Source: Salminus brasiliensis
Taxonomy: Eukaryota > Chordata > Actinopteri > Characiformes > Bryconidae
Assembly (NCBI RefSeq): GCF_030463535.1
Contig: NC_132892.1
Coordinates: 33,162,932 to 33,226,931, forward strand
Direction: 5' to 3'
DNA: 64,000 bases
The notes below the pieces were generated by a model. It searched no databases. It worked only from the letters and a program-made list of their open reading frames with translations, and was not told the DNA's origin. Positions within the stretch are counted from its first letter, which is position 1, and each line of letters starts with the position of its first letter. Both the position numbers and the translations under genes were made by a program. This document shows, piece after piece, positions 4,743 through 61,652 of this stretch.

Positions 4743-6209
<1,467 letters not shown>

Positions 6210-10469: not shown

Positions 10470-10506
<37 letters not shown>

Positions 10507-26914: not shown

Positions 26915-27064
26915 TATATAGTGTGATGCATGTCTGGGTATTGCAAAACAAATGGGGGGGTGTGGAGCTGAGGTCAATGCAAGGGAAGTTTAAAACGTTT
27001 TCACAAAAACCTAAATGCTTTGTAAGGAAACTAATCTGTCATGTTAATATGGACATTTTTAAAG

Positions 27065-29276
27065 ATGATCATCATCATTGTTATCATTCTTTTGCCGGGT
27101 GAGTTTTATCTCTAATATCTATGACGAGTGTAAGTAAATGTGAATTAAACAGCATTATATAAATGTGTTAAACTATATTTGAATAGAATATTACTTCTTA
27201 TCCTGGTTATTCATCAGTATTATTATTTCTATATGTTTGTATATGGTATGTCAGTCACTCACAATGTGAAACTTTTTTCCCAGTAAAAATCAATTTCTTA
27301 GTTGGGTTAAAATTAATCCTCATTGTATATGACTGTCTAATGCTGCATATTTTTGTGTTAAAGCTGGAATCAGTACGGTCTCTGTCATAAACGGGCACAG
27401 AGGACATTCAGTTCAGATAAATTGCTCCTACAAGTCTGGATATGAGACCAACATGAAGTATCTCTGCAGAGGTGAATGTTCCCCTCGGGGAATTAAAGAC
27501 ATCCCTGTTCAGTCTGGATCTGCTGCCAAAGATCAGAGATTCTCTCTGATGGATGATGTAGCAGCCAGAGTCTTCACCATTACCATCACTGATCTGAGAA
27601 AAGAAGATGGAGGAAGATACTGGTGTGGGGTAAAGAGGACTGGTCCTGATGTTTACACAGAGGTTCTGTTACTGGTTAAAACAGGTAAGTGTCCAGACAG
27701 TTGTCATTTTTGTTTCCAAGAGTAAACGTTTATACTGGCTTTTTTTTTTCTTCTACTGCTAAGATGACTCAAAACCAACAATTACCTGTTCAATGTATTT
27801 ACCACCACCAGTGCAGACACAACCTACATTCCTTTCTCCTTACCCAACTGCAGGTATGTGTTTTTTTTAGATCCATTAAATCATAAATGGTTGTTGGTTA
27901 ATTATTTATTATACATTTTGCCTAGAAAAAACAACAGGGTAAAAAAACTTTGGTGGCTTTGGAGGCTTTGGTGTTATTTTTTTTTTATTATTTTGTCAAC
28001 AACTTAAAACCTGTGGATTTCCCCTTTGATTTAATTGCATATAGTTTACCTTTCACTTAATTCACAGTGAGTTTGATGTGACATGATTCATTGCAGAGTA
28101 ACTTATCTGACAGGAAACAGGAATGCAAACATAAATTTGTTGTTAATTGCCATTAACTTGGTAAACTAGTCCTGCTGAATTAACCTAGTGTTCAATATTT
28201 TGTGTGTAGTGTGTGTAGTTCTTCAAATTTCCTTTCAAGTTTCCTGATTAACCCATACAAAGGGAAATTCTAGTTTGGAATGGTCCCAGCACTGTGAACT
28301 GATTGAATAAAGATTATTACTTGAAATGGGTGTTGAACAGTTGAGGCTAGACAGGTAGGACTAATTTAATTGGTATTCATTACAGCAGAGAGTAATGTAG
28401 AATTTTCTTTAGCTGTAAAGTACACGTGGGATTCAGAATACCATCATTGCACTTTCCTCAGACTGCTCTGGTGACAATGTTATCTATAATTCAACTCCAT
28501 AACCCCTCATTGGCACATTCATGCATTTAAAGTCCACACTACTGTCTCTTATTCCTTATATTCCTCTTATTTATTTACTGATTATAAATGAAGAAGATCA
28601 AGAGTTTGAGTCATGCCAATGTCATGGTCATCCATGGCTAGTCGACTAGTCATTGAGTAAAAATGACCTTTTCATTCTCTGGGTGAGTTGGCCTCCGTAC
28701 CACTGTATGTAATTCCTGATTCTGTGATTCCAGGTTTCATCATTCTGTATGTGTGTATTCCACTGCTAGTCTCAGGAATCACCATCAGTGCTGTAGTCAT
28801 TTTCTGCAAATGGAGGAAAACTAGAGGTACATTACCAGCAGTACCACCATATAAATCAAGCAAACACCACAAATCAAAACAAAACAAATGCTTTTTTTGT
28901 GTTCCTCCAGATGTTCAAAGTTCATCTATTCTACGGAGAGCTGTAGGAACTGATGGGGTAAATAAACAAATGCAAACATTCTGAATTGCTTTGTAAATAA
29001 CACATTGTCATAATTACTCTATATTTGCTATTGTGTTTATTTTTACAGGGTGGAACTGATCATGAATATAATCCACCTGGAAAACAGCACCACATAGTAA
29101 TGAGCCATGGCTACCAGAGCCTGCATTTCAATGATAACCAATCAGATTCAGTCTACCAGACTCTAAAACCCAATTCTAATCAATTAAATTCTGTCTACCA
29201 AAGCCTACACCCCAACACAAACCAATCAGACTCGGCCTATGAGACTCTAAACCACAATACCAACCAATCACTTTGA
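27065..29276 (+). CDS. CD300/pIgR-like receptor A, truncated repeat tail
   Basis: Six exons: 27065-27098, 27364-27684, 27764-27853, 28734-28826, 28911-28957, 29049-29276; phases are consistent and give 270 residues. A short isoleucine-rich signal peptide is followed by one V-type Ig domain of the CMRF35/CD300/pIgR kind (INCSYKSGYE, KYLCRGEC, GSAAKDQRFS, GGRYWCGVKR), a proline- and threonine-rich stalk, a TM helix (FIILYVCIPLLVSGIT), a juxtamembrane exon and a repeat tail. The tail has YQSL, YQTL, YQSL and YETL 14 residues apart, each fitting S/V-x-Y-x-x-L. Such receptors bind lipids, immunoglobulin or other ligands on myeloid and lymphoid cells. The tail ends early at TGA 29274-29276, where neighbouring repeat units have TCA; the array stays open afterwards. 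Ligand and sign of signalling cannot be read. Confidence 0.87.
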
Positions 29277-29700
29277 GTCTACCAGAGTCTACACCCCAAC
29301 ACAAACCAATCAGATTTGGTCTACGAGACTCTAAACCCCAATACCATCCATTTATATTCAGCCTACCAGAGCCTAAATTCTAATACAACCAGTCCAATTC
29401 AATCTATTGGAGTGTGCACCTCAATACCAAACATTTAGATACAGTCTACCAGAGTCTAAACGCCAACCAATCAAAGTCAGTCTACCAAACTTGAACGCAA
29501 ACATCAAGCATTCAGACAATCAGAGCCTAATTTCAAAAACAACAAACCAAAGAGCCTAAAACTAAATACAACCAGTCAGATTCAGTCAGAGCCTGACCCC
29601 TTAAGACTAATTTATTAGATTCAATCTACCAGGGACTAAATCTCAACACCAATCATATATAGCCTGAACCACAAATCCAACCATAACAATTTGGTCTACC
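29277..29700 (+). pseudogene. former tail repeats downstream of receptor A stop
   Basis: The same frame stays open for 53 codons after the stop (to TAG 29436-29438) and holds three more tyrosine motifs (VYQSL, VYETL, AYQSL). Decayed 42-nt units continue to about 29700 with frameshifts. These look like former tail-coding repeats turned into 3' UTR by one base change. Confidence 0.75.
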
Positions 29701-29724
29701 AAAGTCTGCAAATATACTGTACAT

Positions 29725-30260
29725 AATATAAGATAAGATAGCACTTTATTGATCCCGAAGGAAATTGCAGTGTCACGGGACAGTACATAATGCGCATGGG
29801 AACAGACATACATTATTAGAATAAAAACAATAAAAGTTACAGACAAGCTATTTACAACAAACAATAAATAAAAGTAAGCAGGGCTGATGTGGATGTATGG
29901 ACTATGTACAAGAGCAGCATATGTATCATTGCACTATAGAGATATAAGGAAGCAAGACTACAGAAAAAAATATTATTACTAGAAGCCACAGTAACAGGAG
30001 AGTGAAACTTTAGTAACAGCAACAGGTCAGGTACAAATGACAGTGCAATACGTGCATTAAGTAATACTACTACTACTACTAATAATAATAACGATAATAA
30101 TAAACTAAACTAACATGTAGCAGTGGGCTTAACTCAGCATAGTTTAGACAGCAGGAGATGACTAGTGTTCCTGCAGGAAAGATACCCATTATAAAGTCCT
30201 ATTGTAGTGGAACTGCTGTAGCAGTCCACCACTGAACAGGCGAAAGTTTACATCTGCTCA
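29725..30260 (+). repeat. dispersed repeat starting CACTTTATTGATCCC
   Basis: Begins AGCACTTTATTGATCCCGAAGG, a string common at the ends of fish retroposons, and contains a (CTA)/(AAT) microsatellite near 30066-30105. No reading frame; class not assigned. Confidence 0.5.
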
Positions 30261-30884
30261 TGTTGATCATTGTTATGTTGTGAAAGGGGTCAGTGGTTGT
30301 GGCTTGCAGAATCTAATAGTTAATCTAGAGGTTCATGGTCAGACAATGGTTGAAACTGAGAATTTTACACAAAGCACTTAACCATAGACTTCTCTGAGAC
30401 CAATCTTATACTGTACATCACTTCCTGTTTCTCACAGCGAATCTGAACTCCAATTCCTCTAGTGCATTTGCCACTTACATGACTAACACATGCTCACCAC
30501 CCACCAATAAGCAACTGTTTTCTTAAGATTTGTTCTGACAACCTGCCTCTTTTGGGTTGACCTTTTTCTGAATAAAACTACCATTTGGTTTTGTATTTCT
30601 GAGTGCAGTTCATTTACCCAGCGTTTCAAAGACCTTCATTATAATGTAATATGACTGAAAACTGTACAGGTTGAATGTACATAGCTAAAAACATGAGTCT
30701 TAATTCAGGAGAATAAATCTGGCTTCATAAAACATCTGTGTTCAAAAATATACTAATTATCAAAAACTTTGATTTGATCTTACTTCTGTAAGCTGGACAA
30801 ATGAAATATAACTTGAGCTAAATATTATATAAATTACATATCCCATCTAGAACATTCCATCTACATATTTCTCCCTTTTTTGTT

Positions 30885-31128
30885 TATTAATTTAATTTCC
30901 AAACAACCTCTTACCAGATCTCTCTCTGTCTCTCTCTCACTCTCAAATTCTTTTTGGTGTGATCCTGCCCTCTAGAGGAAGAGATTTTTAATAATGTGAA
31001 TCAGTACTCTCAGACAGAGAGGAAAATATGGTAGAAACTGAATCTGTTCTTAAAATTATCCAGTAGATGGCAGCATACTGAAAGAAATAAGGAAATCTGC
31101 ATTTAAACAATTACTTTGAGAACTGGCT

Positions 31129-31166
<38 letters not shown>

Positions 31167-31265
31167 CCGACACCAATGACTTACGCTTACCAAAGCCTGA
31201 ACCCCAACACCAATCACTCAGATTCAGTTTACCACAGTAAACCCCAATACCAACTACCAAGATTT
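30885..31265 (+). pseudogene. remnant of a fourth CD300-like gene
   Basis: 30990-31165 aligns with the intron before the TM exon of gene C (shared AATCAGTACTCTCAGACAGA, GGTGGCAGCATACTGAAA-type and AAT-run sequence), but it then jumps straight into tail-exon sequence (ACACCAATGACT, TACCAAAGCCTGAACCCC, TCAGATTCAGTTTACCAC). The TM and juxtamembrane exons are missing, so this is a deletion remnant of a duplicated receptor. Its flank GCCCTCTAGAGGAAGAGATT recurs near 31690. Confidence 0.7.
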
Positions 31266-31317
31266 TAAATACCTTCATCTAAATTTTCATATAAATAAAA
31301 ACCATAAAGGTTGATGA

Positions 31318-31460
31318 ATTTAGTAATGTCTAAAGCTTAGAGGTATCTTTGAACTATTAGTCTATTCTAACTAGCTAAAGTCTTTCTTGGATAAATAACA
31401 AATCACTTTTGTCACTCTGGATAAGAGCGTCTGCTAAATGCCTTAAATGTAAATTAATTT
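31318..31460 (+). repeat. L2-like LINE 3' terminal fragment
   Basis: AGCTTAGAGGTATCTTTGAA through GATAAGAGCGTCTGCTAAAT to TAAATGTAAATT: the 3' end only, plus orientation. Confidence 0.65.
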
Positions 31461-31879
31461 ATACAGCTAAAAATATGAGATTTAAATCACTGTTCATCCA
31501 AGAGACCACAAGTTTGGTTCATTAAAAACACCTTACTGTGTTCAAAATAAATGATAATCAAAAACCTTTATATAAAACTTTTAAATGTATATATATACAC
31601 ATATATCTTTATTTATTTATTTGATTTCCATACAGCCTCTTGTCAGATTCACTCTTGCTTTGCTCTCTCTATGCCACATTCTTTTTAGTGTGGTTCTGCC
31701 CTCTAGAGGTAGAGATTTATAATGGCAAGGGAGTGGAAAGATCACAGCTACAACAGGTTTAGAGTTTTGATTAAAGGGCAACTGAAGAGAACACTGTAAT
31801 TCTAAACCCCAACAACTTTCAGGATATCACAGATGTGAACAAACTGACCTTTCAGTGCACTGAAAAAAACAGAGCTTTA

Positions 31880-32470
31880 TGCTGGTTTACATTTTTTATT
31901 ATTGCAACTCTCTTCTGTCTGGTTCTCTTTTCTGGCTCCCTTTGCATCAGGCCTCTGCAACGTATTCAGAATGCAGCTACACAAGTCGTCTTCAACGTTT
32001 CTAAGTACAGCCATTTCACTCCACTGCTGCGTTCTCTCTTCACTGGCTTCCTGTAACTGCTGCCCACATCATGTTCAGACCCCTGACTCTGGCCTACAAA
32101 GCCAAGACTGGTACCAGCCAGCCCCTCCGTACTTGATGGCGATGGTCAATCAAAAGCCAATCTGCACCAAGAGCCCTTCCAGCTTCAAGTACAGCTTGGC
32201 TCGACCCGCCATCCTTTAAGATCCACAGAAGATGAGCGTCCAGACTTTTTTCTGAGTCCAACGCTCGCTGTCTTCAAACCCAGACTGAAGACCCTCCTTC
32301 TTCTTCTGAGAGGACTTGGGTGAAGAGTAAAGTATTATTCCTTGTCATTGACTTGTGTTGAGTCTAAGATTAGAGGTATCTTTGAATTTTTTGTCTATTC
32401 AAACTAGCTGAGGTTTTTCTATTTGTTGCTCTGGGTAAGAGTGTCTGTTAAATGCTGTAAATATAAATGA
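31880..32470 (+). mobile_element. L2-like LINE 3' end with reverse transcriptase remnant
   Basis: Frames carry a recognisable but broken C-terminal RT region (RPLQRIQNAATQVVFN, YSHFTPLLRSL, then in another frame SLRSTEDERPD-like and LAVFKPRLKTLLL), ending in AGAGGTATCTTTGAA, GAGTGTCTGTTAAATGC and TAAATATAAATG. Stops and frameshifts are frequent. Confidence 0.75.
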
Positions 32471-32560
32471 AATGAAATTTCCCATTACATTACTCATACA
32501 TACATAGTTTGAGGAAGTGTTTCTGTTCATCAGTGTCTGATGAACCCTGTCTAAGTAATC

Positions 32561-32742
32561 TCAGTAGTCTTTACTCAGATCAGTTGGCACCACAGCCTCA
32601 ACTGGTTTTATGACCCAGAAAGTCTTGGTCACAGTAAGAACTTCTGGGAGTGTAAAAGTGCCATTCATAAACACTGTGGATCCTTTCAAAGCACAGATTT
32701 TCTGCTGGTTGTATTTCACACTCCACTCTAATCCAGAAGCTC
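32561..32742 (-). pseudogene. CD22-like V-domain exon with stop
   Basis: After the acceptor CATATGTTTCAG the frame reads LEWSVKYNQQKICALKGSTV, then TKTFWVIKPVE and TDLSKDY followed by TGA. It matches the V exon of the plus-strand CD22-like gene at 45127-45471 (VCALKGSTV-type, DKFWVKNPV, TDLKK). Similarity fades after the stop, and no signal-peptide or later Ig exon is found nearby. A relic of an inverted, deleted copy. Confidence 0.75.
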
Positions 32743-33046
32743 CTGAAACATATGATGCAGTAAAGATCTGATTACAGAGGCTGGAGCCCATCAGACAGTC
32801 AGAGTTACTGTAGCTTACAGCTTCATAGCTTCTCTCCTCTCAACTCTAGCAGCCACTAAACTGACAGCATATGAGTCTTGCAACAGGGTGAGAGAGGAGG
32901 TTGGTGGGAAAGTCCCAACAGACAGTGATATATAAAAAACATAGCTGTTGAATAAAAATACTAAATCATCTCATAAATGTAGCTTGTGGACTGCAGCATT
33001 TCCTAAAAATTATCCCGAGCCAAAGAGCCAAACTCCAAATGTATTG

Positions 33047-33048
<2 letters not shown>

Positions 33049-33089
<41 letters not shown>

Positions 33090-33254
33090 CACTGGATAGA
33101 GATTAATAAACTTAAACCCAATTGAAAAAAACAAAACTCTGAACCGATACAATGAATCAAAACATGAACGGAAACCCAACAAAAGTCCTTAAGGGAGCCT
33201 GCGGGCCGCGGCTCGAGTCCGTCCCGGGGAGGGCGTGATGACGTGGACCTGACA
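33049..33254 (+). mobile_element. (AAT)n and LTR 3' fragment
   Basis: An AAT run (33049-33088) is followed by about 150 bp whose end (AAAAGTCCTTAAGGGAGCCT, GGCCGCGG, CCTGACA) matches the last part of the solo LTR at 42092-42861 (AAAAGTCCCAAGGAGCCT, GACCGCGGCC, GCTGACA). Confidence 0.55.
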
Positions 33255-33419
33255 ATCTGGTAACAGTTTATTTGAAAGGTCAATTATATATGCATTGTAA
33301 ATGCTTACCTGACATTCAACTAACATTTAACTGAATGCAAATGGACTATAAGATGAATGTAAATGGTCTATAGAACCTTACACTTAATTCTAACCCTGCA
33401 GTCAGACACACATTGATTA

Positions 33420-34090
33420 GCAGTACTAATACTTTATTGCATTGATCAATTTAAAAGGGGAAAAACTAATTTTGTACCACCTACAGCCATCAAATTGGGG
33501 ACCAGCATCCAGTGATGTATTGTATTGTCAGTGATGTATTTTTTAAAGCCCACCCCCTCCTCCACCAATTTTATCCAAATGCATTAAGAAACATTACCTA
33601 TTAAATCTTTAATGTATCTTAAACATAACGTATGCTTTGCAGGTTGTACAATCACATCATTCATTAAGAGACCATTCATTATGACCACACTTAAAATTTG
33701 CTGCAGGAGCTCCTTAACTGCTTCATATGTGTGATTATGAGCACTGACTATTTTAACCATGAGGGAACTTTTTGTACAAGTTCCTAAAAAGTTGATTCTG
33801 AGAAGCTTGCTGACTACAGCCCTTGGATATATTTTCTGAAAGCCTATCAACAGTAGCCTTGTCATTGGAACTCCCCCATTCTCCCTCTCAAGCAAAACAT
33901 TACATTAACTATTTCATCTAATTATTGATTTTTATTAAAGATTGATCACTAAGCTTCTGTCAGCATTTTAACACACATTCTCACCAGTCTAAATCAGAAT
34001 CAGTAATCAACACTAATACCAACTTTAACGAATAACTGAGAAACAGCAAAACTGATCTCAGACCATCTTCTGCTCAGGGCAGATCACTCA
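33420..34090. other. upstream region of receptor B, duplicated before receptor C
   Basis: Alignable with about 36990-37480 (shared strings such as GAAAGCCTATCA, AGAAGCTTG, TGAGAAACA, GATCTCAGACAT/CC). A 103-codon minus-strand open frame here is not kept in the other copy, so I treat the whole as duplicated flank. Confidence 0.55.
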
Positions 34091-34092
34091 GG

Positions 34093-34106
34093 AGGAAGTG
34101 GTTGAG
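34093..34106 (+). promoter_or_regulatory. ETS:RUNX-like element upstream of receptor B
   Basis: AGGAAGTGGTTGAG, 186 bp before the start codon, preceded by CTCAGGAGG as in gene C. Confidence 0.5.
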
Positions 34107-34134
34107 TGGTCATTACTGTGCACTGTGACATAGG

Positions 34135-34142
34135 CGAGAGAG

Positions 34143-34202
<60 letters not shown>
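34135..34202. repeat. (AG)n in promoter region of receptor B
   Basis: Near-perfect AG run about 77 bp before the start codon, at the same position as a longer AG run before receptor C. Confidence 0.95.
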
Positions 34203-34204
<2 letters not shown>

Positions 34205-34278
34205 CATTGACTAGAGGAAGTATTAAACTTAAGAGTGGCGTGTGAGAAAACTTTTTGTTGTTCCTGGTGTTTTTAAAC

Positions 34279-36483
34279 ATGACCAACATCTCCATCATCA
34301 CCATCTCCATCACCATTGTTGTTATTCCTGGTAAGTTTATCCTCTTTCATCTGTTCAAGATCGTGCATTATGAGCTTAGCTTCACACACCAATGAGTAGT
34401 TAGTCTAGCAGTTAATCTCTGATAAAGACAGAACGGTTGAAAACAGAAGTGTTTGCTCTGATACTCCATGTTCTCTATTGGGTGTTTCTATAGTATTTGT
34501 ATCATTATGCCATGAAAGAGTGCATGGATGTTTGCATGTCATTCATTTCTATAAGAAAAAACCCTGTAAAAATCTGTTATGAGGAAAACCTGCATTCGTT
34601 CATAAAATTGTATACAGGCTTGTATTGTAGAGCGACCTGTCTGGATTTGAAACTGATTTTAAGTTCATCTTAAAAACTGAGATAGTAATAAAAATAAAAA
34701 TAACAAGAAGAAGAAGAAGTCTCAGTGTTTATAATGCTCTAATGTTATGTGTTTTGCATTACAGCTGGAATCAGTGCTGTACTGACTTTTACTGGACTCA
34801 AAGGACATTCAGTTCAGATTAAGTGTCCATATAACTCTAGATATGCTAACAGCAAAAAGTATCTCTGCAGAGGTGAATGTCTACCAACAGGAACTAGAGA
34901 CATCCCAGTTCATTCTGGATCTGCTGCTGGAGATCAGAGATTCTCTCTGGAGGATGACACCACAGCCAAAGTCTTCACCATCACCATCACTAATCTAAGA
35001 ACAGAGGATGGAGGAAAATACTGGTGTGTGGCAGAGAGACTCTATCTATTTGCTCCTGCTTACACAGAGGTTCTATTACAGGTCAATACTGGTGAGTGAG
35101 CAGACAGCTGAGAGCGGTTTCTGCGGTTTGGGAATTCTTAAACTAAATTAATGTTGTGCTTTTATTTTTATTTTTGTCTAGGTGCACTGATATCTACTGC
35201 TGACCCCCTTTTTGTATTTACATTCACTTCTACACAAGTGCAGAAATCACCCATATTCCCTACCCTTACTGCATCTGTAGGTATGTTGACTCTACTCTCC
35301 ATCAATCCTGGAATACCTGCAGTGTAGGAAATGTGAGTGTCAATAACCTTTACATTGGCAAAGAACCTTTATATACATTTCTTTAAAAAAAGGTTCTTCA
35401 CATACTTAAAGAGCCCCTTATAGCATATTTAGTTTTATTAAATATGTATTAAAATAGCTGGTCCTGCTTTTGTTGGAGTAACTGTCTCTACTGTCCTGAG
35501 AAGAAGACTTTCTACTAGATTTTGATTGCATTCAGTGACAAAAGCATTAGCGAGGTCAGGATGTTGGATGATCTCCACCATACTCAAAAGTACTGGTTGA
35601 GCTCCATCACCATCATTCCAGAGAGCACATTTCTTCCGCTGCTTCACAGTTCCTCAATGCTGGGGGGCTTTATATACATCCCTTTAGTCCACGCCTGGTA
35701 TTAGGCAGCATGGTGCCAATAGGTTCATGATGTTTATCTGCTACAGAGAGTCCTATTCTATTGGCAATACTTTGCTACATGGACTAGACAAGCAGTGTGT
35801 GTGTGCAGTTTCACACCTGTGTCAGCAATGGGTGTATTCAATAATAAAGATAATAATCTTTCTTATAAACTCTGTAGACACTAAAGCCAAAAGTGTCTTC
35901 ACTGATTTCAGGGTTCATCTGTGCATCACTGCTGATCTCAGGAATAGCTGTGGGTGTTATTGTCTTATTCTTGAAAAGGAGAAAAACTAGAGGTACATTA
36001 AATGCTCTCTCTCTCACTCTCGCACTCTCTCTCTTTCACTGTCTTTCTCTCTCGCCATCGCTCCAAGATTTACACAGAAAGAAATCACACCAACATCATC
36101 AACACAACTAGTGCATTTCTTGTTTTCCTTACAGATGTCGTGATCTCTGCTAGGCCACAGACAGATGTGGGAGGATTCGGGGTGAGTGAACAGTAAATAT
36201 TGAGGCTATAGATTTATGATTGGAGGAACACCATCATCATTTCTCTGTAACTGATTGGGACTCTGGTTTATTTCCACAGGATGGAGCTGATTATGAAAAT
36301 GATTTACATCAAAGCCAAAACACCACGCCAGTTTACCAGAGCCTAAATCCCAAAACCAACCGCTCAGATTCAATCTACCAGAGTATAAACCCTCAAACCA
36401 TCCAATCAGATTCAATCTACCAAAGTATAGATCCCAACACCAATAAATCAGAATCATTTTACAAGAGCCTAAATGTCCAATGA
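34279..36483 (+). CDS. CD300/pIgR-like receptor B
   Basis: Six exons: 34279-34330, 34765-35091, 35182-35280, 35912-35992, 36135-36181, 36280-36483; 269 residues. Signal peptide, V-type Ig domain (IKCPYNSRYA, KKYLCRGEC, GSAAGDQRFS, GGKYWCVAER), Thr/Ser-rich stalk, TM helix followed by FLKRRKTR, the juxtamembrane exon DVVISARPQTDVG (nearly identical in gene C), then a tail with VYQSL, two IYQSI and FYKSL at 14-residue spacing, plus DYENDL at its start. All four spaced motifs keep the +3 hydrophobic residue, so this is the best preserved tail of the three for SH2-domain partners such as SHP-type phosphatases or, given ITAM-like spacing, Syk-type kinases; which one is not decided by sequence. A MITE lies in intron 3. 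Poly(A) signals at 36642-36647 and 36654-36659. Confidence 0.87.
35455..35800 (+). mobile_element. MITE family copy 4 in intron of receptor B
   Basis: Shows TGATTGCATTCAGTGACAAA, GGATGTTGGATGATCTCCAC, CATTCCAGAGAGCACATTTC, CAATGCTGGGGGGCTTTATA and CAATAGGTTCATGATGTTTA, the fullest version of this family here. Confidence 0.65.
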
Positions 36484-36639
36484 GCCAATCAGATTCAGTA
36501 TGCTGTTATTATTGCTAAAATATATTTTGTATGTTTTGTTGTTGTTGATTTGTTGAAGTGTTTTTGATGGTAAACCTACTAAATGCAGGAACTCACAGGC
36601 TTTGCCATCTCATGATTAACTGCTGTGTTTAGTACAGCT

Positions 36640-36660
36640 GAAATAAACTGTCAAATAAAC
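36640..36660 (+). terminator. poly(A) signals of receptor B
   Basis: Two AATAAA hexamers 160-175 bp after the stop codon; the counterpart in gene C is at 40878-40895. Confidence 0.7.
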
Positions 36661-36704
36661 TGTTTACTGTTTCTGATACCTTTACTATGAAATGCATACT
36701 CATG

Positions 36705-36850
36705 TAGCTACTTTAGGCCACAGTAAGAGAGGTTTGTAAAGTTCTAGGTCACCATAAAGAGGAATGTAAAGTTCTAGGCCACAAAATGGGGGGTTATAAA
36801 GTTCTGGGCAAAGTAAAGGAGGTTGTAGAATTCTTAGTAACAGGGTGGTA
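36705..36850 (+). repeat. decayed ~31-bp minisatellite
   Basis: Repeats of the form TTGTAAAGTTCTAGGCCACAG with AGAGG spacers, about four to five imperfect units, just past the receptor B poly(A) signals. Confidence 0.7.
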
Positions 36851-37484
36851 AATATACTTGTAACATCACATCTGAGCATTTTCACCCCAGCCAAAGTCAG
36901 GCCCTTAATGTATATACATCAAACAACTTAAAATGCTAGAGAATGCTTTCTTTTGGAGCTTAGATCATATAAATAAGCTGTAATAAGCTGACAGCAAAGT
37001 TATTATTTTAAGCTCACCCCCTCTACATGCCATTTTACCCACATGCATTTATATAGACCAAACATTGTATACTGGCCAACTACGAGATTACATCCATAAA
37101 AGGTCAATTTCAAACTTTTTCACCCTTATGTATGATTTGCCAGCAGTAAAATGATGCTATAATTTATTAAGAGAATGTTTAGTTCTATAATTAGTTCTAA
37201 CTCGAAATTCTGTGGGAAGGCTCAGTAACTGCCTCAACTAAGTGAAGTTTAAGTGTAGTACCTTATAAAGAGATTCTTAGAAGCTTGATGACTATAGGCC
37301 CTGGACCTGCTATTTGAAAGCCTATCAGCAGCAGCAGCAGTCTTGGGTACTCCTCCACCACCCACTCACCCAAAACAAAACTGATTCAGAGCCAGTGTCC
37401 AACACTCTAATACAACTTTAAGTATTAAATGAGAAACATCAGACATGATCTCAGACATTTTCTGGTCAGGGCAGACCACTCAGG

Positions 37485-37498
37485 AGGAAGTGGTTGAG
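37485..37498 (+). promoter_or_regulatory. ETS:RUNX-like element upstream of receptor C
   Basis: AGGAAGTGGTTGAG, 183 bp before the start codon, in the same context as in gene B (CACTCAGGAGGAAG). Confidence 0.5.
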
Positions 37499-37510
37499 AG
37501 TATGACGTAG

Positions 37511-37512
<2 letters not shown>

Positions 37513-37590
<78 letters not shown>
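37513..37590. repeat. (AG)n in promoter region of receptor C
   Basis: Uninterrupted AG run about 78 bp before the start codon; longer than its counterpart before receptor B, so its length has changed since duplication. Confidence 0.95.
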
Positions 37591-37593
<3 letters not shown>

Positions 37594-37667
37594 CTCACCC
37601 AAAGAAGTGTTAAACCGAAGGACGGTTTGTAAGGAAAACTACCTAATCTTGTGTAGATGTTTAGAAC

Positions 37668-39954
37668 ATGACCTTTATCTCCATCACCACCATCACCATA
37701 ATCCTTCTCATTCCTGGTGAGTTTAAGATCATGCATTAGAAACTCAGCATCACACAGCAGTGAGTTACTGTAGTTCATCTCTGATGTAGACAGACTGGTT
37801 CCTCTTTCTTCTCTGTTTTTAACACTGTTTCTATCTCAGGAAGAAGCTTCTGGTTGTGTTTGAGTCTCTTGTTTTCTGCATCATTTTTTTTTTTTTTTAC
37901 AGTTTGTAGAAGGTTTGTAAACCTCAAGTGCTTACCATTTCCAGGAATTTGCTAGTGATTGCTATAGTATTCCAGGTGGTTTCTATGGTATTGCTAAGTC
38001 ATTGCTATGGTATTCTAGTTGTTTGATATGGTATCCCAGGCAGTTGCTATAGTTTTGCTAGGTGACTGATGTTGTTACGGTATTGATGCATAGTTACTAT
38101 TGTGTTGCTAGGTGGGTGATATGGTTTTGCTTGGTGGGTGCTACAGTGCTGCAAAATGGTTGCTATGGTGTCCCAGGTGGAGTGACTGCTATGATGTTTC
38201 TATGTGAATGCTAGACAATCTACAGTGCTGAATGGGATTTGCTATAGTATTGGTGGCTATGGTTTTGCAAGGCAGTTGCTATGCTCAAGTGACTGATAGT
38301 TGTTGGCCAGTGGCTGTTGCGATGCTTCTAGGCTGTTGTTTCTAGTGTATTTGTATCATCATGACATGAAAGGGTGCATCTAATTAAACAGCTGTGAACA
38401 AGCCTGATCTGCACAACCAGACCCAACAACCTGGAGTTGGAATGGTGTCGACATCTCAAAACTGAAAAAAAAATTGGATATAAATATAGTTATTCATGAC
38501 CGCTACCTTCTCAGCTCTCTGGTTCTGTATCTCTTTACTGGGGGAATACATTCTCCCTTATTCTGTACTTTTGTTTTACAGCTGGAATCAGTGCTGTAAC
38601 TACCATAACTGGACACAGAGGTCAGTCAGTTCAGATTAAATGCTCCTACAAGTCTGGATATGAGACCAACATAAAGTATCTCTGCAGAGGTGAATGTCCT
38701 TACCTGGGAAATAGAGACATCCCTGTTCAGTCTGGATCTGCTGCTAAAGATCGGAGATTCGCTCTGAAGGACGACACAGCAGCTAGAGTCTTCACCATCA
38801 CCATCACTGATCTGAGAACAGAGGATGAAGGAACATACTGGTGTGGGGTGAAGAGGAATGGCCCTGATGCTTACACAGAGATTCTGCTATTGGTTAGAAC
38901 TGGTGAGTGACGGCTGGTTTGGAAATGAAAATGCTTAAACTAAATTAATGTTATGTTGACTTTTTTCTTTTGTTTAGATCTTCCAGAGTCTACTACTGTC
39001 TCCCTCTTCACATTTACACCTTCACCAGTGCGGAAACCATCCACAAACCTGTCTCCTCCTGCATCTACAGGTGTGTTTGCTCTCATATGTCCCATCAAAC
39101 CAGTAGTACCTGCAGGTTTATTGTGAACTTTCATTTCACTGTACATGAAATGTAAATGTTTTGTTTGTAAATACATAAAATGTAATGTTTTGTTCAGTAA
39201 TTGCCAAAAGGTTACATTTGTGCTACCAATTAATGAAACACTTATAGACACTATACTGTATCATTACTGTACAGTAAAAATAACAGAAAATAACAAGATA
39301 TGACCGGGCAGAGACCTTAAGGGGTTACAGTTCTAACATTTATCTCCATTTTTGACCCAATTGGATTTAAATTTATATAATTTTCCTAGACTGCCTTTCT
39401 GCCTACAGATTTAAAACATAACTCTTAGTGAAGCTCCCTCTGTTTCTTAGCAGATAGTGTTTTGAGCTGTCCATGATGCCACATTAGCAGTAGTTTAAAA
39501 AGAAGCAGTGACTGGTCTCATCATCTCACCTTCACCCTTCCAGTCTGGAAGGAAAACAATTAGTAGAAGCTTGATTAACAATTCTAATAATGTTTCTACT
39601 GTTCTCACAGTGGATTTCTACAGACCAGAATTCTGAATACAGAATCAGATTAACGTAAATCAGTACTCTCAGACAGATATGATGAACATGTACTCAAAAA
39701 CAACCAGTAGGTGGCAGCATACTGAAAAAAAGAACAAGAGAATTTGTTTTTCAACAATGACTATAATAATAATAATAATCATAATTATAATCATAATCAT
39801 CATTATACTGTTATTTCTGTTGCCAGGTACGATTATTCCATATGTGCTGGTTTCGCTGCTGGTCTTGGGAATTCCGGGTATTATAGTCTTAATCTGCAAG
39901 AGGAGGAAACCTAGAGGTACATCAACAGGTCTCTGTGTCTGTCTGTGTCTGTCT

Positions 39955-39993
<39 letters not shown>

Positions 39994-40525
39994 AGATATA
40001 CTTTTCCACACACACACACACAAATCACACACAGCTATTTTTTTTTCCTTCCAGATGTTGTAATCTCTGCTAGGCCACAAACAGATGTGGGAGCAGTTGA
40101 GGTGAGTAAACAGTGAATATTGAGGCTAGAGTGTTATTATTGGAGGAACACTGGCATCATTTCTCTGGTACTGATGTGACTCTGGTTTATTTTCACAGGA
40201 CAGAGCTCATTTAAAAAATGATCCACATGAAAGCCAAAACCCCACACCAATGACCCCAGTTTATGAGAGCTTAAACCTCAACACCAACAAATCAGATTCA
40301 GTCTACCAGACCCTTAACCCTAAAAACATTCAATCAGATTCAGTCTACCAGTGCCTATACCCCAAGATCAACCAATCAAATTTACTTTACCAGAGCTCAA
40401 ATCCCAAAACCAACATCAACCAGTCAGATTTAGACTACCAGAGCCCAAACACCAATCAGTTGGATTCAGTCTACCAGATCCCAAACCCCAACACCAACAA
40501 ATTGCGTTCAGTCTACTACAGTTAG
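37668..40525 (+). CDS. CD300/pIgR-like receptor C, long decaying tail
   Basis: Six exons: 37668-37716, 38582-38902, 38978-39070, 39827-39916, 40055-40101, 40199-40525; 308 residues. Same layout as receptor B: signal peptide, V-type Ig domain (IKCSYKSGYE, KYLCRGEC, GSAAKDRRFA, GTYWCGVKR), stalk, TM helix with CKRRKPR after it, DVVISARPQTDVG, repeat tail. The Ig domain is closest to that of receptor A, while the juxtamembrane exon is closest to receptor B, which suggests exon exchange between copies. The tail has seven tyrosine sites: VYESL, VYQTL and VYQCL are intact, but LYQSS, DYQSP, VYQIP and VYYS have lost the +3 Leu/Ile. A TTGCTATGG-type minisatellite lies in intron 1 and a (CT)n run in intron 4. 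Poly(A) signals at 40878 and 40890. Confidence 0.87.
37950..38345 (+). repeat. TTGCTATGGT / TTGCTAGGTGG minisatellite
   Basis: Many imperfect units of about 20-22 bp built from TTGCTATGGTATT and GCTAGGTGG words in intron 1 of receptor C. Similar tandem repeats are frequent in fish genomes. Confidence 0.8.
39764..39812. repeat. (AAT/ATC)n before the TM exon of receptor C
   Basis: Imperfect trinucleotide run ending about 15 bp before the TM exon; its paralogous counterpart is the AAT run in the broken copy near 31.1 kb. Confidence 0.85.
39950..39992. repeat. (CT)n in intron 4 of receptor C
   Basis: Simple CT run after GTCTGTGTCTGTCTGTGTCT. Receptor B has a shorter CT-rich stretch at the same place. 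Confidence 0.9.
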
Positions 40526-40895: not shown

Positions 40896-42009
40896 ATGTT
40901 TGTGCTTCTTGATATCTTTACTACAAAATGCACATACTTCCAGCTACTATTACTACAAGAGCAAAATTTATAATGACCGGGACTCCTGTAATGGCTCTAA
41001 GCTGCCAGAAGATGCTTGTATTGAGACAGCAAATTTCAAAACACACATTTCATAATAGAGCTGCAGTACCACAGAGTGGCATAATAGCAAATTGCTTCAC
41101 CCAGTTGCTCATTCATTGCTTAGCTGATGTAACTATACTGAAAAAAAAATGTGATTTGTAATTCTGACCTTTTTAATAATAATGCAAGAAACTATGTTAT
41201 CATGTGTTCACAGTCCAAATGTTTAAGTTAAAAAAAAAAAAAATAGAAATCTGTACTGAATGGCCATGTGGGCTGGAAATTAATGAAGGGTGCTTTCTTC
41301 TTTCCACTTCAAATTATATTCCACTGCAAATTATAAATCCAGCACTTTGCACATTTCAGATGTATATGTTGTTAGTATTTTCAATATAAATAATATAAGT
41401 GGCCAAGAATCACTACAGAAATGATTGAAAACAACAAAATAAATAGCCAAAAATGACATTGAACAGAAAACATTATATTAAAATTATAAATACTTTGTCC
41501 TACTTCTATAACATTATTGTTGCAGAAATATTAAGTTTTACTTAAACAATGAGAACATCTAATCTGCATTTTGTTTATGTGCATTTCTATTTAAATGTTC
41601 TAAGAATATACATGTGTGTGTTTTTTTATGTGCGAAACTTCAGAGAGATGTCTGATGAGAACCATATTGAGTAATCTTGTGGTGTGATGCAGACATTTTT
41701 CTGGCAAGAAATTATGTTGCAAAACAATTGCATAACTTTTTCCTCTCAGACAAAAAGGGAAAACCCTTGGTCAGTTGTAATATGCAGGATTTAACCAAAG
41801 TTAAAGCCTATTGGAGCAGGTCTGATTCAATCAATCTTTGCTGTTCCATTGTCTGTGATGACTACAAATTGTCCTCTGTTTTGGATGCTGTTAATGTAAT
41901 ATTCTACACCATGGTATGTTATTATCTTACATGATTCATATTTTGATATGATAGAAATATGTCTACGTTTATCTGTCTAGCTCTCTGGCTGTCTGTCTAG
42001 TCACTGGTT

Positions 42010-42076
42010 GGAAGGAAGGAAGAAAGAAAAAAAACAAACAAACAAACAAACAAACAAACAAACAAAAAAAAAAAAA
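42010..42076. repeat. (GGAA)/(CAAA)n microsatellite
   Basis: AAGGAAGGAAGAAAG followed by a CAAA run and poly-A, directly left of the solo LTR. Confidence 0.9.
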
Positions 42077-42091
42077 CTCTTATCTCCAAAA

Positions 42092-42861
42092 TGTCATGCT
42101 GGCTAGGCGAGACAAGGGAACACTGGCAGGGACAGAGCAAAGCAAGAAAATGGTCTTTAATGATAAAACCAAACAAACAAACACAAAACGAGGCAGCAAA
42201 GTACAGGGTCCAAAAACCAGAAACAGAAAACAAACAGGTGACAACAGAATTGGGGCTAAACCTGGGAAGACCACCTGAGGCTGGAGTGTAGCCCGGGAGC
42301 AAAGTGAGAATGGGCAAATCAAACAAAGGGAGGAAGGCTAGAACTCAAAGAAACCAATGAAACCGGCAAAACAAAACCTCACCACAAAACCGCGCTCGTC
42401 AGGCGCTGATAAACTTACTGGACTAGAGTGCCAGGGAACCGGACGCCAAATCCCAGTGGCGACCAACCGGTGACCCAGACAGCAATCTCCTTCTGAACGT
42501 GAAACTGCTCCGATAGAGCATCCACTACCGAAACCTGTAGACTCTCCTAGAAGTCTCATAAACGCGAAGCCAACCTTACAGCTTGGCATCGCAAGAGTAA
42601 TTCTCAGCGATGAGCCATCTGCGTTTGCTCCCTTTGTACCCCAGCACTCAGGTGAAACTAATCAGAACTAAACAGAAAACATGGCATCTTACTTCAACCT
42701 TACTTACGTCAACATAAAAGTCCTTAGTGAGTAAACCCACAGGAGGAACAGAAATTACATGAACATTGAAATCAACCCAACATCCACTGAAAAGTCCCAA
42801 GGAGCCTGTGGACCGCGGCCCAAAACCGCCCCTGGGGGGGTGCGGCGCCGCTGGGCTGACA
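42092..42861 (+). mobile_element. solo LTR with 5-bp target-site duplication
   Basis: 770 bp beginning TGTCATGCTGG and ending GGGCTGACA, so it has TG...CA ends with the 5-bp inverted terminus TGTCA/TGACA. It is flanked by CAAAA at 42087-42091 and 42862-42866. The paralogous site at 44045-44060 reads CTCCAAAACAGC with a single CAAAA and no insert, which is the empty site. No coding sequence lies inside, so this is the product of LTR-LTR recombination. Superfamily is not certain; 5-bp duplications are usual for Ty3/gypsy-type elements. Confidence 0.88.
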
Positions 42862-43002
42862 CAAAACAGCTTTCAATGGAGGTCACTGAGCAAACATAAA
42901 ATGCAAAAAGACTTTATTCTATTATTTTGAAGCATTTCCATCAGTCCATTTATGCAATTGTAAAAATGTGATGAATGCCTTTATATTTATTTCTTTATTT
43001 GA

Positions 43003-43005
43003 TTA

Positions 43006-43038
<33 letters not shown>
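43003..43038. repeat. (GATT)n microsatellite
   Basis: Tetranucleotide run at the place where the TTTA/TTTG run precedes exon 1 in the functional copy. Confidence 0.9.
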
Positions 43039-43040
<2 letters not shown>

Positions 43041-43148
43041 TCACTCACATTCTCCCAGTTGCTCATCATATTTGCTTAGCTGATGTAACTATGCTGAAAA
43101 AGAAACATTTTTCACTCAGAATTGTGTAATTTGCAATTCTGGCCTATT

Positions 43149-43151
43149 TAA

Positions 43152-43217
<66 letters not shown>
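43149..43217. repeat. (AAT)n microsatellite
   Basis: Long AAT run in block Y of the second copy; in copy 1 only AATAATAA is present. Confidence 0.95.
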
Positions 43218-43218
<1 letters not shown>

Positions 43219-44170
43219 CAAGAAACTATGTTCTCATGCATTCACAGTCCAAATGTTTTTCTAAAAGAAATTAGAAATCTGTACTGAATAGCCATGTGGG
43301 CTGGAAATTAATGAAGGGTGCTTTCTTCTTTCGACTTTTGCAAATTATAAATCCAGCACTTTGCACATTTCAGATGTATTTGTTGTTAGCATTTTCAATA
43401 TAAATAATATAAGTGGCCAAGAATCACTACAGAAATGATTTAAAAAAACAACAAAATAAATAGTCAAAAATCACATTAAACAGAAAACATTATATTAAAA
43501 TTATAAATACTTTGTCCTACTTCTATAACATTTAAGTTTTGCTTAAACAATGAGAACATCTAATCTGCATTTTGTTTATGTGCATTTCTATTTAAATGTT
43601 CTAAGAATATACATGTGTGTGTTTTTTATGTGCAAAACTTCAAAGAGATGTCTGATGAGAACCATATTGAGTAATCTTGTGGTGTGATGCAGACATTTTT
43701 CTGGAAGGAAATTATGTTGCAAAACAATTGCATAACTTTTTCCTCTAAGACAAAAAGGGAAAACCTACTTGGTCAGTTGTAATATGCAGGATTTAACCAA
43801 AGTTAAAGCCTATTGGAGCAGGTCTGATTCAATCAATCTTTGCTGTTCCATTGTCTGTGATGACTACAAATTGTCCTCTGTTTTGGATGCTGTTAATGTA
43901 ATATTCTACGCCATGGTATGTTATTATCTTACATGATTCATATTTTGATATGATAAAAATCTATCTATGTTTATCTGTCTATCTCTCTGCCCGTCTAGTC
44001 ACTGGTTGGAAGAAAAAAACAAACGAAACAAAACAAAAAAACTCTTATCTCCAAAACAGCTTTCAATGGAGGTCACTGAGCAAACATAAAATGCAAAAGG
44101 ACTTTATTCTAAGTAATTTTGAAGCATTTCCATCAGTCCATTTATGCAATTGTCAAAAAGTGATGAATGC

Positions 44171-44283
<113 letters not shown>

Positions 44284-44922
44284 AATAATAACAAACTATG
44301 TTCTCATGTGTTCACAGTCCAAATGTTTAAGGCTTTTCTAAAGAAAAAATAGAAATCTGTACTGAATGGCCATGTGGGCTGGAAATTAATATAGGGTGCT
44401 TTCTGACTTTTACAAAGTATAAATCCAGCACTCCGCACACTTTAGATGTTTATGTTTTTAGCATTTCCAATATAAATAATAGAAGTAGTCAGGAATCACT
44501 ACAGAAATGATTAAAAACAACAAAAGAAATAGTCAAAAAATACATGGAACAGAAAACATTATATGAAAATTATAAATACTTTTTCCTACTTCTAAAACAT
44601 TATTGTAACATCGAATCTGCATTTTGTCTATGTGCATTTCTATTTAAATGTTCTAAGAATGTAATTGTGTGTGTTTTGTAATGGGCAAAACTTCAGAGAG
44701 AGAACTATATTGAGTAATCTTCTGGTGTGATGAAGACATTTCTCTGGCAGGGGAAATTACGTTGCAAAACAATTGCATAATTGGCAAAAACTAATCTCCA
44801 AAATAGCTTTCAATGGAGGTCACTTTGAAAACATATAATATGTAAAAAGATTCTTAGTCATTTTGAAGCATTTCCATCAGTCCATTTATGCAATTGTCAA
44901 AAAAAAGATGAATGGCTTTATC

Positions 44923-44927
<5 letters not shown>

Positions 44928-44953
<26 letters not shown>

Positions 44954-44985
44954 TTTGTTTGTTTGTTTGTTTGTTTATGTATTTA
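44928..44985. repeat. (TTTA)n-(TTTG)n abutting the start codon
   Basis: Tetranucleotide run that ends in TTTATGTATTTATTGCAG, supplying the sequence context of the chosen ATG at 44977. Confidence 0.9.
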
Positions 44986-50401: not shown

Positions 50402-51466
50402 TCACTGGCTGCAGGGAGCATGGTCATTTCCTGATTTTTTTGTGCCATCAGTGTCCTGATGAAACTTGATGCTGGCATACTGTGTATGTTCCTCAGTGCT
50501 GGAGACCGATGGCTGGCCAGGTGAGACATTCAAAGAAGCTTGAAGTGAAACAGTGGTATACAGGACATCATCTTGATTGTCTGCATCAGAGTCATTTGAT
50601 GGATCAGCTGCAATGTCTTTCAACTGATCGTGGCTATTTATGTCCTGCTGACAAATAAAAGGAAAGTAACCTTTACATATGAAAGTATGCAGGTGCCAGG
50701 TAACCCTATCAATACTCCCCTGTAAAAAGAAAAAGTATGATCACATTTGCTTTACCTTGTTAAATCCTTCTCTTTGTTTGAATCTGAAACTGGGGAAAAG
50801 AAAATGAAATGTCAAATTTATTGAATTGCAAATGCATTTCAAAAACAAAACAAAAAAATGTTTTGTATGACTAGTGAATCATCAAGTCCTTACGTGTTTT
50901 ACAACCATTCAAATTTAGCTCAAGAGCAGGCCGCAAAATGAGTAACATCATTACACTTGATGTTAAAGTGCAGCATGTACCATCAGAAAGAGACCTAACA
51001 AGTTTGATCTTCACAGGAGGTGAGCAAGGAGGAAACACTTACTGTAAAATAACATGATCATGGCAAGATCCTCTTAAACCTTTTTCTAATTTCTTATTCG
51101 ACACCATTTGAAGTTGTAAAAAGTGTGTTTTTCACAAGAAAATTCGATTTATATTAATTACATTTTATAGATGATGATTAAAGAATTTCTTCTGTTGTAT
51201 GAGTTTAGTTAGATCACTTCCATTCCTCAGCATTGATCGTATGAAGATTAAATGTCCAGGTGTTTTTCATGGGGTGTACTAACTTTTTCCACATGATTTT
51301 AAGTAACAATTTATTTAGATGACAAATGGTCCTGAACTTAACCAAAAATCCCTAAACTTACCATATCCACAAGGTGACCAACAGAAAAAAGCCTCCACAA
51401 ACTGCTAACCCGGTAAGAGCATACATAAGAGTGTTAGAATGTCCTGAAATTGATACAAACAATTAG

Positions 51467-51536
<70 letters not shown>

Positions 51537-53664: not shown

Positions 53665-53699
53665 CTTGAAAAAGAAATACACAAGTTAGTTTTACAGCT

Positions 53700-55859: not shown

Positions 55860-55910
<51 letters not shown>
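55855..55910. repeat. (AAAT)n microsatellite at the left edge of the tandem duplication
   Basis: Tetranucleotide run; a shorter version (59182-59208) sits at the junction between the two 3.3-kb copies. Confidence 0.95.
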
Positions 55911-55912
<2 letters not shown>

Positions 55913-55950
55913 ATCATCACCCAACTTTACTGATCTGAGACCCACTCCAT

Positions 55951-56125
55951 AGTGGCAGTGGTGGCTCAGCAGTAAGAACACTGGGTTATGAATGATTAGG
56001 TTGTGGGTTCAATACCCGATAAGTTGCCACTGTTCGGCTCTTCGGGCCCTTCACCCTCTCCTCAGGTACTTCTCTGGGCACATGTGCTCACTGTCACTTG
56101 GGTGTGTGTTTACTGCATGGATGGT
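55951..56125 (+). repeat. tRNA-SINE inside duplication copy 1
   Basis: AGTGGCAGTGGTGGCTCAGC (A box), TTGTGGGTTCAATACCCG (B box), GTTGCCACTGTTCGGC, GGGCCCTTCACCCTCTC. Its twin is at 59249-59423. Confidence 0.8.

Positions 56126-61586: not shown

Positions 61587-61588
<2 letters not shown>

Positions 61589-61649: not shown

Positions 61650-61652
<3 letters not shown>

What the first reader, a model, noticed from the sequence alone, without database searches (positions are those of the whole stretch)
29049..40525. Signalling tails made of a 42-nt repeat giving one YxxL motif every 14 residues
In receptors A, B and C the last exon is a tandem repeat in which each unit supplies S/D-S-V/I-Y-Q-x-L/I. 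Neighbouring motifs are separated by ten residues, which satisfies both ITIM (single) and ITAM (paired, 6-12 spacer) rules. Copy numbers differ between genes, so repeat expansion and contraction directly tunes the number of docking sites. This looks like a DNA mechanism for fast evolution of receptor signal strength or sign.
Basis: partly seen in the sequence, partly recalled or inferred. Interest (0 to 1): 0.8.

Follow-up and report, generated by a model that had tools for sequence, protein, structure and literature searches.

The report
Repeat-built inhibitory tails on fish receptors
In what looks like a fish genome, a family of immune receptors carries a short in-frame DNA repeat that adds about one likely 'off-switch' docking site per copy to the inner tail, and related genes encode from about 1 to 13 such sites; whether this tunes signalling, or varies between individuals, is untested.

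Summary
A, B and C are intact six-exon models of single-V-domain CD300/pIgR-like receptors. Their last exons are 42-nt tandem repeats, mostly one Tyr per 14 residues. YxxL/I is present in 11 of 15 translated units (A 4/4, B 4/4, C 3/7).

No tail of the three meets canonical ITAM spacing (x6-8). ITIM matches number 3, 3 and 2. Intact motif number is nearly flat, and each stop codon lies inside the array, with repeat sequence continuing past it.

The window's own genome widens the finding. The unit core gives 158 hits against 3 for the reversed pattern; 54 of the 74 hits with 0-2 mismatches lie in C15 33.19-34.44 Mb, amid about 90 V exons. Thirteen tails with an exon-start signature, each with a V exon upstream, encode 1-13 ITIM-like motifs. 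Units resemble their own array more than chance (38.3 of 110 against 8.1); one array is an 84-nt dimer at 97% match.

So array turnover does change docking-site number between genes. Inhibition is likelier than a sign switch. Expression, phosphorylation and polymorphism are untested.

The parts
27041..27098 (+). Gene A exon 1, signal peptide
   Evidence: ORF with GT donor, frame continues into V exon
27364..27684 (+). Gene A exon 2, V-set domain with four Cys
   Evidence: Pfam V-set E=1.7e-11; splice sites
27764..27853 (+). Gene A exon 3, stalk
28734..28826 (+). Gene A exon 4, uncharged transmembrane segment
28911..28957 (+). Gene A exon 5, juxtamembrane
29049..29276 (+). Gene A exon 6, tail: 4 YxxL motifs (GYQSL, VYQTL, VYQSL, AYETL), TGA inside the next unit
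29277..29707 (+). Repeat past A's stop: three more motifs in the same frame to about 29387, then frameshifted and decayed units
   Evidence: nhmmer hits; 0 of 500 shuffles
30992..31254 (+). Relic D: C-type intron 3 joined at a (TAA)n run to one to two tail units; no V exon found between 29.7 and 34.7 kb
   Evidence: blastn to C 39651-39803 and 40238-40308; V scan
34279..34330 (+). Gene B exon 1, signal peptide
34765..35091 (+). Gene B exon 2, V-set domain
   Evidence: Pfam V-set E=7.6e-10
35182..35280 (+). Gene B exon 3, stalk
35912..35992 (+). Gene B exon 4, uncharged transmembrane segment
36135..36181 (+). Gene B exon 5, juxtamembrane
36280..36483 (+). Gene B exon 6, tail: 4 units (VYQSL, IYQSI, IYQSI, FYKSL), TGA at the unit end; 15 nt identical to the consensus unit follow (36485-36499)
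37668..37716 (+). Gene C exon 1, signal peptide
38582..38902 (+). Gene C exon 2, V-set domain
   Evidence: Pfam V-set E=1.4e-12; CD300-like model
38978..39070 (+). Gene C exon 3, stalk
39827..39916 (+). Gene C exon 4, uncharged transmembrane segment
40055..40101 (+). Gene C exon 5, juxtamembrane
40199..40525 (+). Gene C exon 6, tail: 7 Tyr units, 3 with YxxL (VYESL, VYQTL, VYQCL); TAG inside unit 7, repeat similarity to about 40582

Best explanation
A, B and C belong to a large cluster of CD300/CMRF35- and pIgR-like immune receptors in what is most likely a teleost genome. Their last exon is a coding minisatellite. Each 42-nt unit adds 14 residues (about N-Q-S-D-S-V-Y-Q-S-L-N-P-N-T) and so adds one ITIM-like tyrosine without changing the frame. 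Unequal exchange or slippage within arrays, plus stop codons arising inside arrays, makes related genes differ in the number of sites. Most likely Src-family kinases phosphorylate the ladder and it recruits the tandem-SH2 phosphatases SHP-1/SHP-2, so the receptors mainly inhibit, with avidity that rises from one to a few sites and then saturates. Shown here: exons, repeat, frame, motif counts, variation among genes, within-array homogenisation. Inferred: splicing and expression, phosphorylation, SHP recruitment, effect on signal strength, the exchange mechanism.
For: Complete in-frame GT-AG models. V-set domain; pIgR and CD300 head the PDB sequence hits, and the top nine Foldseek hits are chains of CD300 entries. 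Uncharged TM in A, B, C and in 8 of the 9 TMs found among 13 genes. ITIM consensus 3/3/2 in A/B/C and 1-13 over 13 tails. Tyr kept in 45 of 46 translated unit hits against 21 of 25 after stops (Fisher p=0.049). pN/pS among 11 full translated units of A-C 0.45, bootstrap 0.35-0.58. Nearest neighbour in the same array for 38.3 of 110 units against 8.1 expected. 84-nt dimer array at 97% match in L046. [quoted passage not shown]
Against: No transcript, protein or phosphorylation data. In A-C the intact motif number is nearly constant (4, 4, 3) and full units are old (57-88% identical within a gene, the more divergent first units left out). Positions 1+2 against position 3 differ only marginally between translated and post-stop units (ratio 0.39 against 0.63, p=0.06); arrays without exon signature, a mixed set, score 0.37; post-stop units keep L/I/V in 25 of 25 against 43 of 46 translated. 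So selection for the motif is weakly shown. Median bootstrap pN/pS is not lower in the motif core than in the spacer (0.51 against 0.42); in the 8 motif-intact units it is (0.35 against 0.53). The TM scan asks for high hydropathy, so TMs with a charged residue would tend to be missed; 4 of 13 were not found, and L043 has a Lys at the TM edge. One tail without exon signature (L040) has an x6-8 spacing. By my reading of the ~40 A linker rule (PMC10231330), neighbouring motifs 14 apart may be too close for one SHP2; every second motif (28) would fit better.
Confidence: 0.6

Rival explanations
1. The ladder is mainly activating or dual: paired YxxL motifs act as a loose ITAM and recruit Syk, so repeat number sets the sign as well as the strength.
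For: D at Y-3 (D-x-x-Y-x-x-L) occurs in many units. A review of catfish IpLITR1.1b proposes Syk binding to tandem ITIMs 22 residues apart, as reported for PECAM-1, and describes both inhibition and phagocytosis (PMC4810170 passages). L040 has one x6-8 pair.
Against: ITAM consensus is x6-8; 0 of 13 signature tails and 1 of 21 array tails fit it. Motifs fit ITIM, and the TMs found are mostly uncharged.
Confidence: 0.2
2. Array length is mostly neutral minisatellite drift. Receptors need only two to four membrane-proximal motifs, and extra units and stop positions are tolerated noise.
For: A, B and C keep 4/4/3 intact motifs whatever the array length. C's distal units lose L/I. Arrays run past stops in 5 of 13 genes by unit hits and in B and C by alignment. 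In the bacterial precedent the large step in SHP2 binding is between one and two or more sites (abstract). Codon tests for constraint are weak.
Against: Genes E, L045 and L046 encode 13, 8 and 8 ITIM-like motifs in one open frame. Tyr is kept better in translated units.
Confidence: 0.35
3. The tail is a structural spacer or endocytic element: YxxL as AP-2 sorting signals controlling receptor surface level.
For: YxxPhi is also the AP-2 sorting consensus (recalled); pIgR, a relative, is a trafficking receptor (general knowledge).
Against: Ser at Y-2 and the ITIM-type context are not needed for AP-2; multi-site ladders are not typical for it (both recalled).
Confidence: 0.1

Closest known systems
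CD300 / CMRF35-like molecules (CLM), mammals
   Same: Single V-set domain with a second Cys pair, one TM, inhibitory members with ITIM tails; top fold match and strong sequence match
   Different: Not known to me to have a tail encoded by a tandem DNA repeat; here 1-13 ITIM-like motifs per gene. Strand-C motif is YLCR, not the YWCR given for CD300
Teleost pIgR / pIgR-like (PIGRL) multigene families
   Same: pIgR gives the best PDB E-values by summed score; zebrafish has at least 25 PIGR copies (PMC4016189 passages)
   Different: Those zebrafish copies are described with two or three Ig domains; A-C have one V exon and a repeat tail
Chicken BG genes
   Same: Ig V-like receptor multigene family whose cytoplasmic tail is built of 21-nt repeat exons; size polymorphism from tail length is in a cited title; some encode ITIMs (PMC4046983 passages)
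   Different: BG repeats are separate exons for heptad repeats, and the ITIMs lie in translated intron sequence; here each repeat unit itself holds the motif, in one exon
Catfish leukocyte immune-type receptors (IpLITR)
   Same: Teleost IgSF receptors with multi-tyrosine tails and SHP-binding ITIMs (PMC4810170 passages)
   Different: In the passages seen the tail tyrosines are not described as a tandem DNA repeat
Helicobacter CagA EPIYA-C segments
   Same: Variable tandem duplication of a tyrosine docking segment changes SHP2 binding (PMC4623810 abstract and opening text)
   Different: Bacterial effector, unrelated; named only as a mechanistic precedent

Membership tests
CD300/pIgR-like V-domain receptors | V-set domain | tested here: met
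   Pfam PF07686 over cut-off in A, B, C and E
CD300/pIgR-like V-domain receptors | Closest solved relatives are CD300/pIgR | tested here: met
   Sequence; Foldseek ranks 1-9 are chains of CD300 entries, rank 10 NKp44; model mean pLDDT 75.5, from a 3-row alignment
CD300/pIgR-like V-domain receptors | Two Cys pairs in the V domain | tested here: met
   C21, C35, C39, C88 invariant in A-C; pairing itself not tested
CD300/pIgR-like V-domain receptors | YWCR motif in strand C (as given for CD300 in PMC3031540) | tested here: inconclusive
   A-C have YLCR, three of four residues
CD300/pIgR-like V-domain receptors | Ligand (lipid or Ig) binding | not testable with these tools
   No binding data
ITIM-bearing inhibitory receptor | S/I/V/LxYxxI/V/L in the cytoplasmic tail | tested here: met
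   3, 3, 2 in A, B, C; 1-13 in 13 tails; consensus from PMC9231431
ITIM-bearing inhibitory receptor | No charged residue in TM for adaptor pairing | tested here: met
   A, B, C uncharged; 8 of 9 TMs found among 13 genes, L043 has a Lys at the edge, 4 not found by a scan biased to uncharged TMs
ITIM-bearing inhibitory receptor | Phosphorylation and SHP-1/2 recruitment | not testable with these tools
   Needs wet experiment
ITAM-bearing receptor | YxxL/I-x6-8-YxxL/I | tested here: not met
   0 of 13 signature tails; 1 (L040) of 21 array tails
Coding VNTR (polymorphic) | Tandem in-frame repeat | tested here: met
   42-nt, 14-codon units
Coding VNTR (polymorphic) | Copy number differs between individuals | not tested
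   One assembly only; differences between paralogues shown

The most novel reading that the evidence does not exclude
A whole vertebrate immune-receptor cluster uses one in-frame minisatellite as a dial. Array expansion adds ITIMs and mutation to stop inside the array removes them, giving paralogues with about 1 to 13 inhibitory docking sites and probably length alleles within the species, so that inhibitory strength evolves at minisatellite rate rather than point-mutation rate.
Probability: 0.35. Interest if true: 0.8.

Novelty: new variant of a known kind. Interest (0 to 1): 0.62.

Why it matters
Inhibitory immune receptors usually have one to a few ITIMs (general knowledge), and how ITIM number maps to strength is a quantitative question. 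Here nature supplies a series of similar 14-residue units in related receptors, in numbers from few to many, made by a DNA process that can be genotyped by PCR or long reads. That makes dose-response of tandem-SH2 recruitment, and selection on it in wild fish, directly testable. My ten text searches of the open-access library, of which searches were aimed at this, listed no paper on such tails; two searches showed only the top 15 of 119 and 10 of 95 papers, and subscription papers and protein databases were not searchable here.

Tried and rejected
Rejected: that the arrays are chance or plainly non-coding. That repeat number in A-C itself explains differences in motif number (stops and motif loss do). 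My own interim view that the tails are a static 3-4 motif design: the own-genome search showed up to 13 ITIM-like motifs. Relatives in viral contigs: none for the V domain or the tail. Motif strings in papers: the only hit is an unrelated paper. Pfam for the tail: C's tail none; L046's tail gave only weak hits, none above its cut-off by the table (PF09341 equals it at 20.9), no matched stretch, read as low-complexity chance. L058 and L059, two further close V-exon relatives (79% and 71%), show no tail within the roughly 3.7 and 4.0 kb fetched downstream of V (transposase-type Pfam hits in L059), so they add nothing to the count.

Rows dropped before counts: of the 21 arrays, eight lack the exon-start signature and for some the script chose a wrong frame; they were not used for coded counts. 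The signature was a set of patterns I wrote after seeing the tails, three of them made for A, C and E. The C27 array (L057, 13 ITIM-like motifs in one frame) has no V exon in the fetched 9.9 kb and no signature, and is among the eight. Arrays of L041, L053, L054, the first of L050, and relic D, seen, fell below the stricter threshold, so its unit and after-stop numbers are lower bounds. Unit comparisons leave out the first unit of each gene and C's unit 7. One search missed minus-strand arrays by its filter and was completed.
Full report
1. What is there. Genes A (27041-29276), B (34279-36483) and C (37668-40525) each assemble from six exons with GT-AG junctions into open proteins of 278, 269 and 308 residues: signal peptide, one V-set domain, stalk, uncharged transmembrane segment, a 47-nt juxtamembrane exon, and the repeat tail. 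B and C are a tandem gene duplication, colinear in pieces from upstream of exon 1 to the tail. A shares its V exon most with C (86%), but its juxtamembrane exon is only 55-62% identical to those of B and C, which share 85%, so the parts may have different histories. Relic D at 30992-31254 is a remnant of a further copy: C-type intron 3 fused at a (TAA)n run to one to two tail units.

2. The repeat. The 42-nt unit codes about NQSDSVYQSLNPNT. TRF scores were 328, 142 and 132, with no period >=30 array in 300 shuffles each. Translated tails have 4, 4 and 7 Tyr units; all 15 keep Tyr and 11 keep L/I at Y+3. The script's count of four YxxL/I in C includes an off-register YPKI. The spacer between complete neighbouring motifs is ten residues. 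That is outside the x6-8 ITAM consensus given in two reviews (passages seen), and A-C contain no x6-8 pair. ITIM consensus matches number 3, 3 and 2. Shuffling residues rarely reaches these counts in A (1 of 10,000) and B (4 of 10,000) but often in C (748 of 10,000).

3. Stops inside arrays. A ends at a TGA within a unit; three more motifs follow in the same frame before a frameshift, with decayed units to about 29707. B and C end by stops in units whose alignment to the consensus needs a one-base gap, and repeat sequence follows (15 nt exact in B; to about 40582 in C). Post-stop similarity exceeds all 500 composition shuffles in each case. So DNA copy number and motif number are not the same quantity. 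I cannot exclude that a stop is an assembly error or a rare allele.

4. Age within the window. Full units of one gene are 57-88% identical, with mean 0.733 within against 0.696 between genes over 14 units (permutation p=0.0034). The three tails align in register from the exon start. A shows an 84-nt duplication (units 2-3 into 4-5; 81% and 88%). In A-C, expansion is therefore old, and intact motif number is nearly flat (4, 4, 3).

5. The own genome. After busy replies the genome answered: 1.07 Gb, window = C15:33162932-33226931. The 22-nt core of the unit with up to 3 mismatches gave 158 hits against 3 for the reversed pattern. The list is complete to 2 mismatches: 74 hits, on C15 (56, of which 54 in 33.19-34.44 Mb), C27 (16) and C11 (2), by my count; only part of the 3-mismatch hits is listed, some on other contigs. 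C's V domain finds 136 V exons at E<=0.001 (150 candidates scored, a lower bound): by my count 92 on C15, 89 of them between 33.19 and 34.43 Mb, and 44 on other contigs. I fetched 19 stretches around arrays and two V-exon neighbours. Of 21 arrays analysed, A-C included, 13 have a tail ORF with an exon-start signature (DYENDPP-like, with patterns of its own for A, C and E), and each of the 13 has a V exon upstream on the same strand (for L046 it is about 6.4 kb away, and for the ten genes outside the window splicing was not modelled). ITIM-consensus counts: E/L039 13, L042 2, L043 3, L044 3, L045 8, L046 8, L048 1, L052 2, L055 2, L056 2, A 3, B 3, C 2. Gene E lies 24 kb beyond the window on the other strand; its V exon is 75% identical to C's, and its tail has 15 Tyr, six YxxL/I and nine YxxV.

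6. Turnover. Over 110 units from the 21 arrays, the nearest neighbour is in the same array for 38.3 (chance 8.1). Identical pairs are 32 of 425 within arrays and 48 of 5378 between arrays. L046 is a 3.4-copy 84-nt dimer at 97% match; L042 and L043 arrays match at 94%, 88% and 90%. Some arrays thus expanded locally and recently. Repeat units after the stop occur in 5 of 13 genes by unit hits, plus B and C by alignment.

7. Selection. pN/pS among 11 full translated units of A-C is 0.45 (0.35-0.58). Core and spacer do not differ clearly: bootstrap medians 0.51 and 0.42, while in the 8 motif-intact units 0.35 and 0.53. Genome-wide, Tyr is kept in 45 of 46 translated units against 21 of 25 post-stop units (p=0.049). 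The position 1+2 to position 3 mismatch ratio is 0.39 against 0.63 (p=0.06), and 0.37 in the mixed arrays without signature, where Tyr is kept in 32 of 40. L/I/V at Y+3 is not better kept in translated units (43/46 against 25/25). This is weak support for constraint on the translated tail, not proof of a docking function.

8. Mechanism (inference). ITIM-type motifs and uncharged TMs (8 of 9 found among 13 genes, by a scan biased to uncharged TMs) point to SHP-type inhibition. SHP2 works best with about a 40 A linker between its two sites (PMC10231330 passages), and in a PD-1 study shorter linkers cut SHP-2 activation (PMC7078208 passages). By my arithmetic, Tyr 14 apart leaves too short a linker and Tyr 28 apart suits, so three or more units would be needed for one well-placed pair. 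In the bacterial precedent, two or more docking segments bind SHP2 over a hundredfold better than one (PMC4623810 abstract), so strong effects are expected at low copy number; saturation later is my guess. Syk binding to 22-residue-spaced ITIMs is proposed for a catfish receptor (PMC4810170 passages), so a dual role is not excluded.

9. Known or new. The V domain places the genes with CD300 and pIgR-like receptors. Repeat-built tails exist in chicken BG (PMC4046983 passages), with a different unit and logic. Expansion of zebrafish PIGR genes (PMC4016189 passages) and copy number variation in a herring CLM2 region (PMC11088111 passages) are published. No paper listed in my ten full-text searches describes ITIM units as a tandem DNA repeat, as far as titles, abstracts and the passages I read show.

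Noticed in passing
window 55884-58900 and 59182-62242: Tandem duplication of about 3.1 kb at 98% identity with no ORF over 89 aa listed; looks recent.
   Followed up: partly
window 45048-46689 (+) and 50405-53714 (-): CD22-like multi-Ig gene pieces on opposite strands (arms 46362-46484/52540-52662 87% complementary); the minus-strand ORF at 50405-50740 reads VLYTTV and TQYASI, ITIM/ITSM-like.
   Followed up: partly
window 41170-44976: Three-fold direct repeats (79-93% identical), probably a transposable element or tandem duplication.
   Followed up: no
window 4991-5320: Transposase fragment with Sleeping Beauty HTH domain (Pfam PF25787, E=7.5e-19).
   Followed up: no
window 10235-10576 (-): Secretin-family 7TM exon, PF00002 E=1.5e-13, upstream of the receptors.
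   Followed up: no
L057:6360-7303 (C27): Isolated array of 23 unit hits, 13 ITIM-like motifs in one open frame, but no V exon or exon signature within 9.9 kb; could be another gene or a stray minisatellite.
   Followed up: partly
L045:3567-4225: Array of 16 unit hits in which the segment ending in the stop codon (GLNPYKQL-D/E-stop) appears twice, as if the stop was duplicated with the repeat.
   Followed up: partly
window 36280-36320, and L042, L045, L052, L055, L056 tail starts: Tail exons begin with DYEND, a YxN motif of the Grb2-SH2 type (recalled); A has EYNPP and C has LKND there.
   Followed up: no
G000:C70:20161-36066 and C15:33857672-33873826: Three V exons with identical scores on C70 and C15, as if C70 were an alternative haplotype; might allow an allelic comparison.
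   Followed up: no
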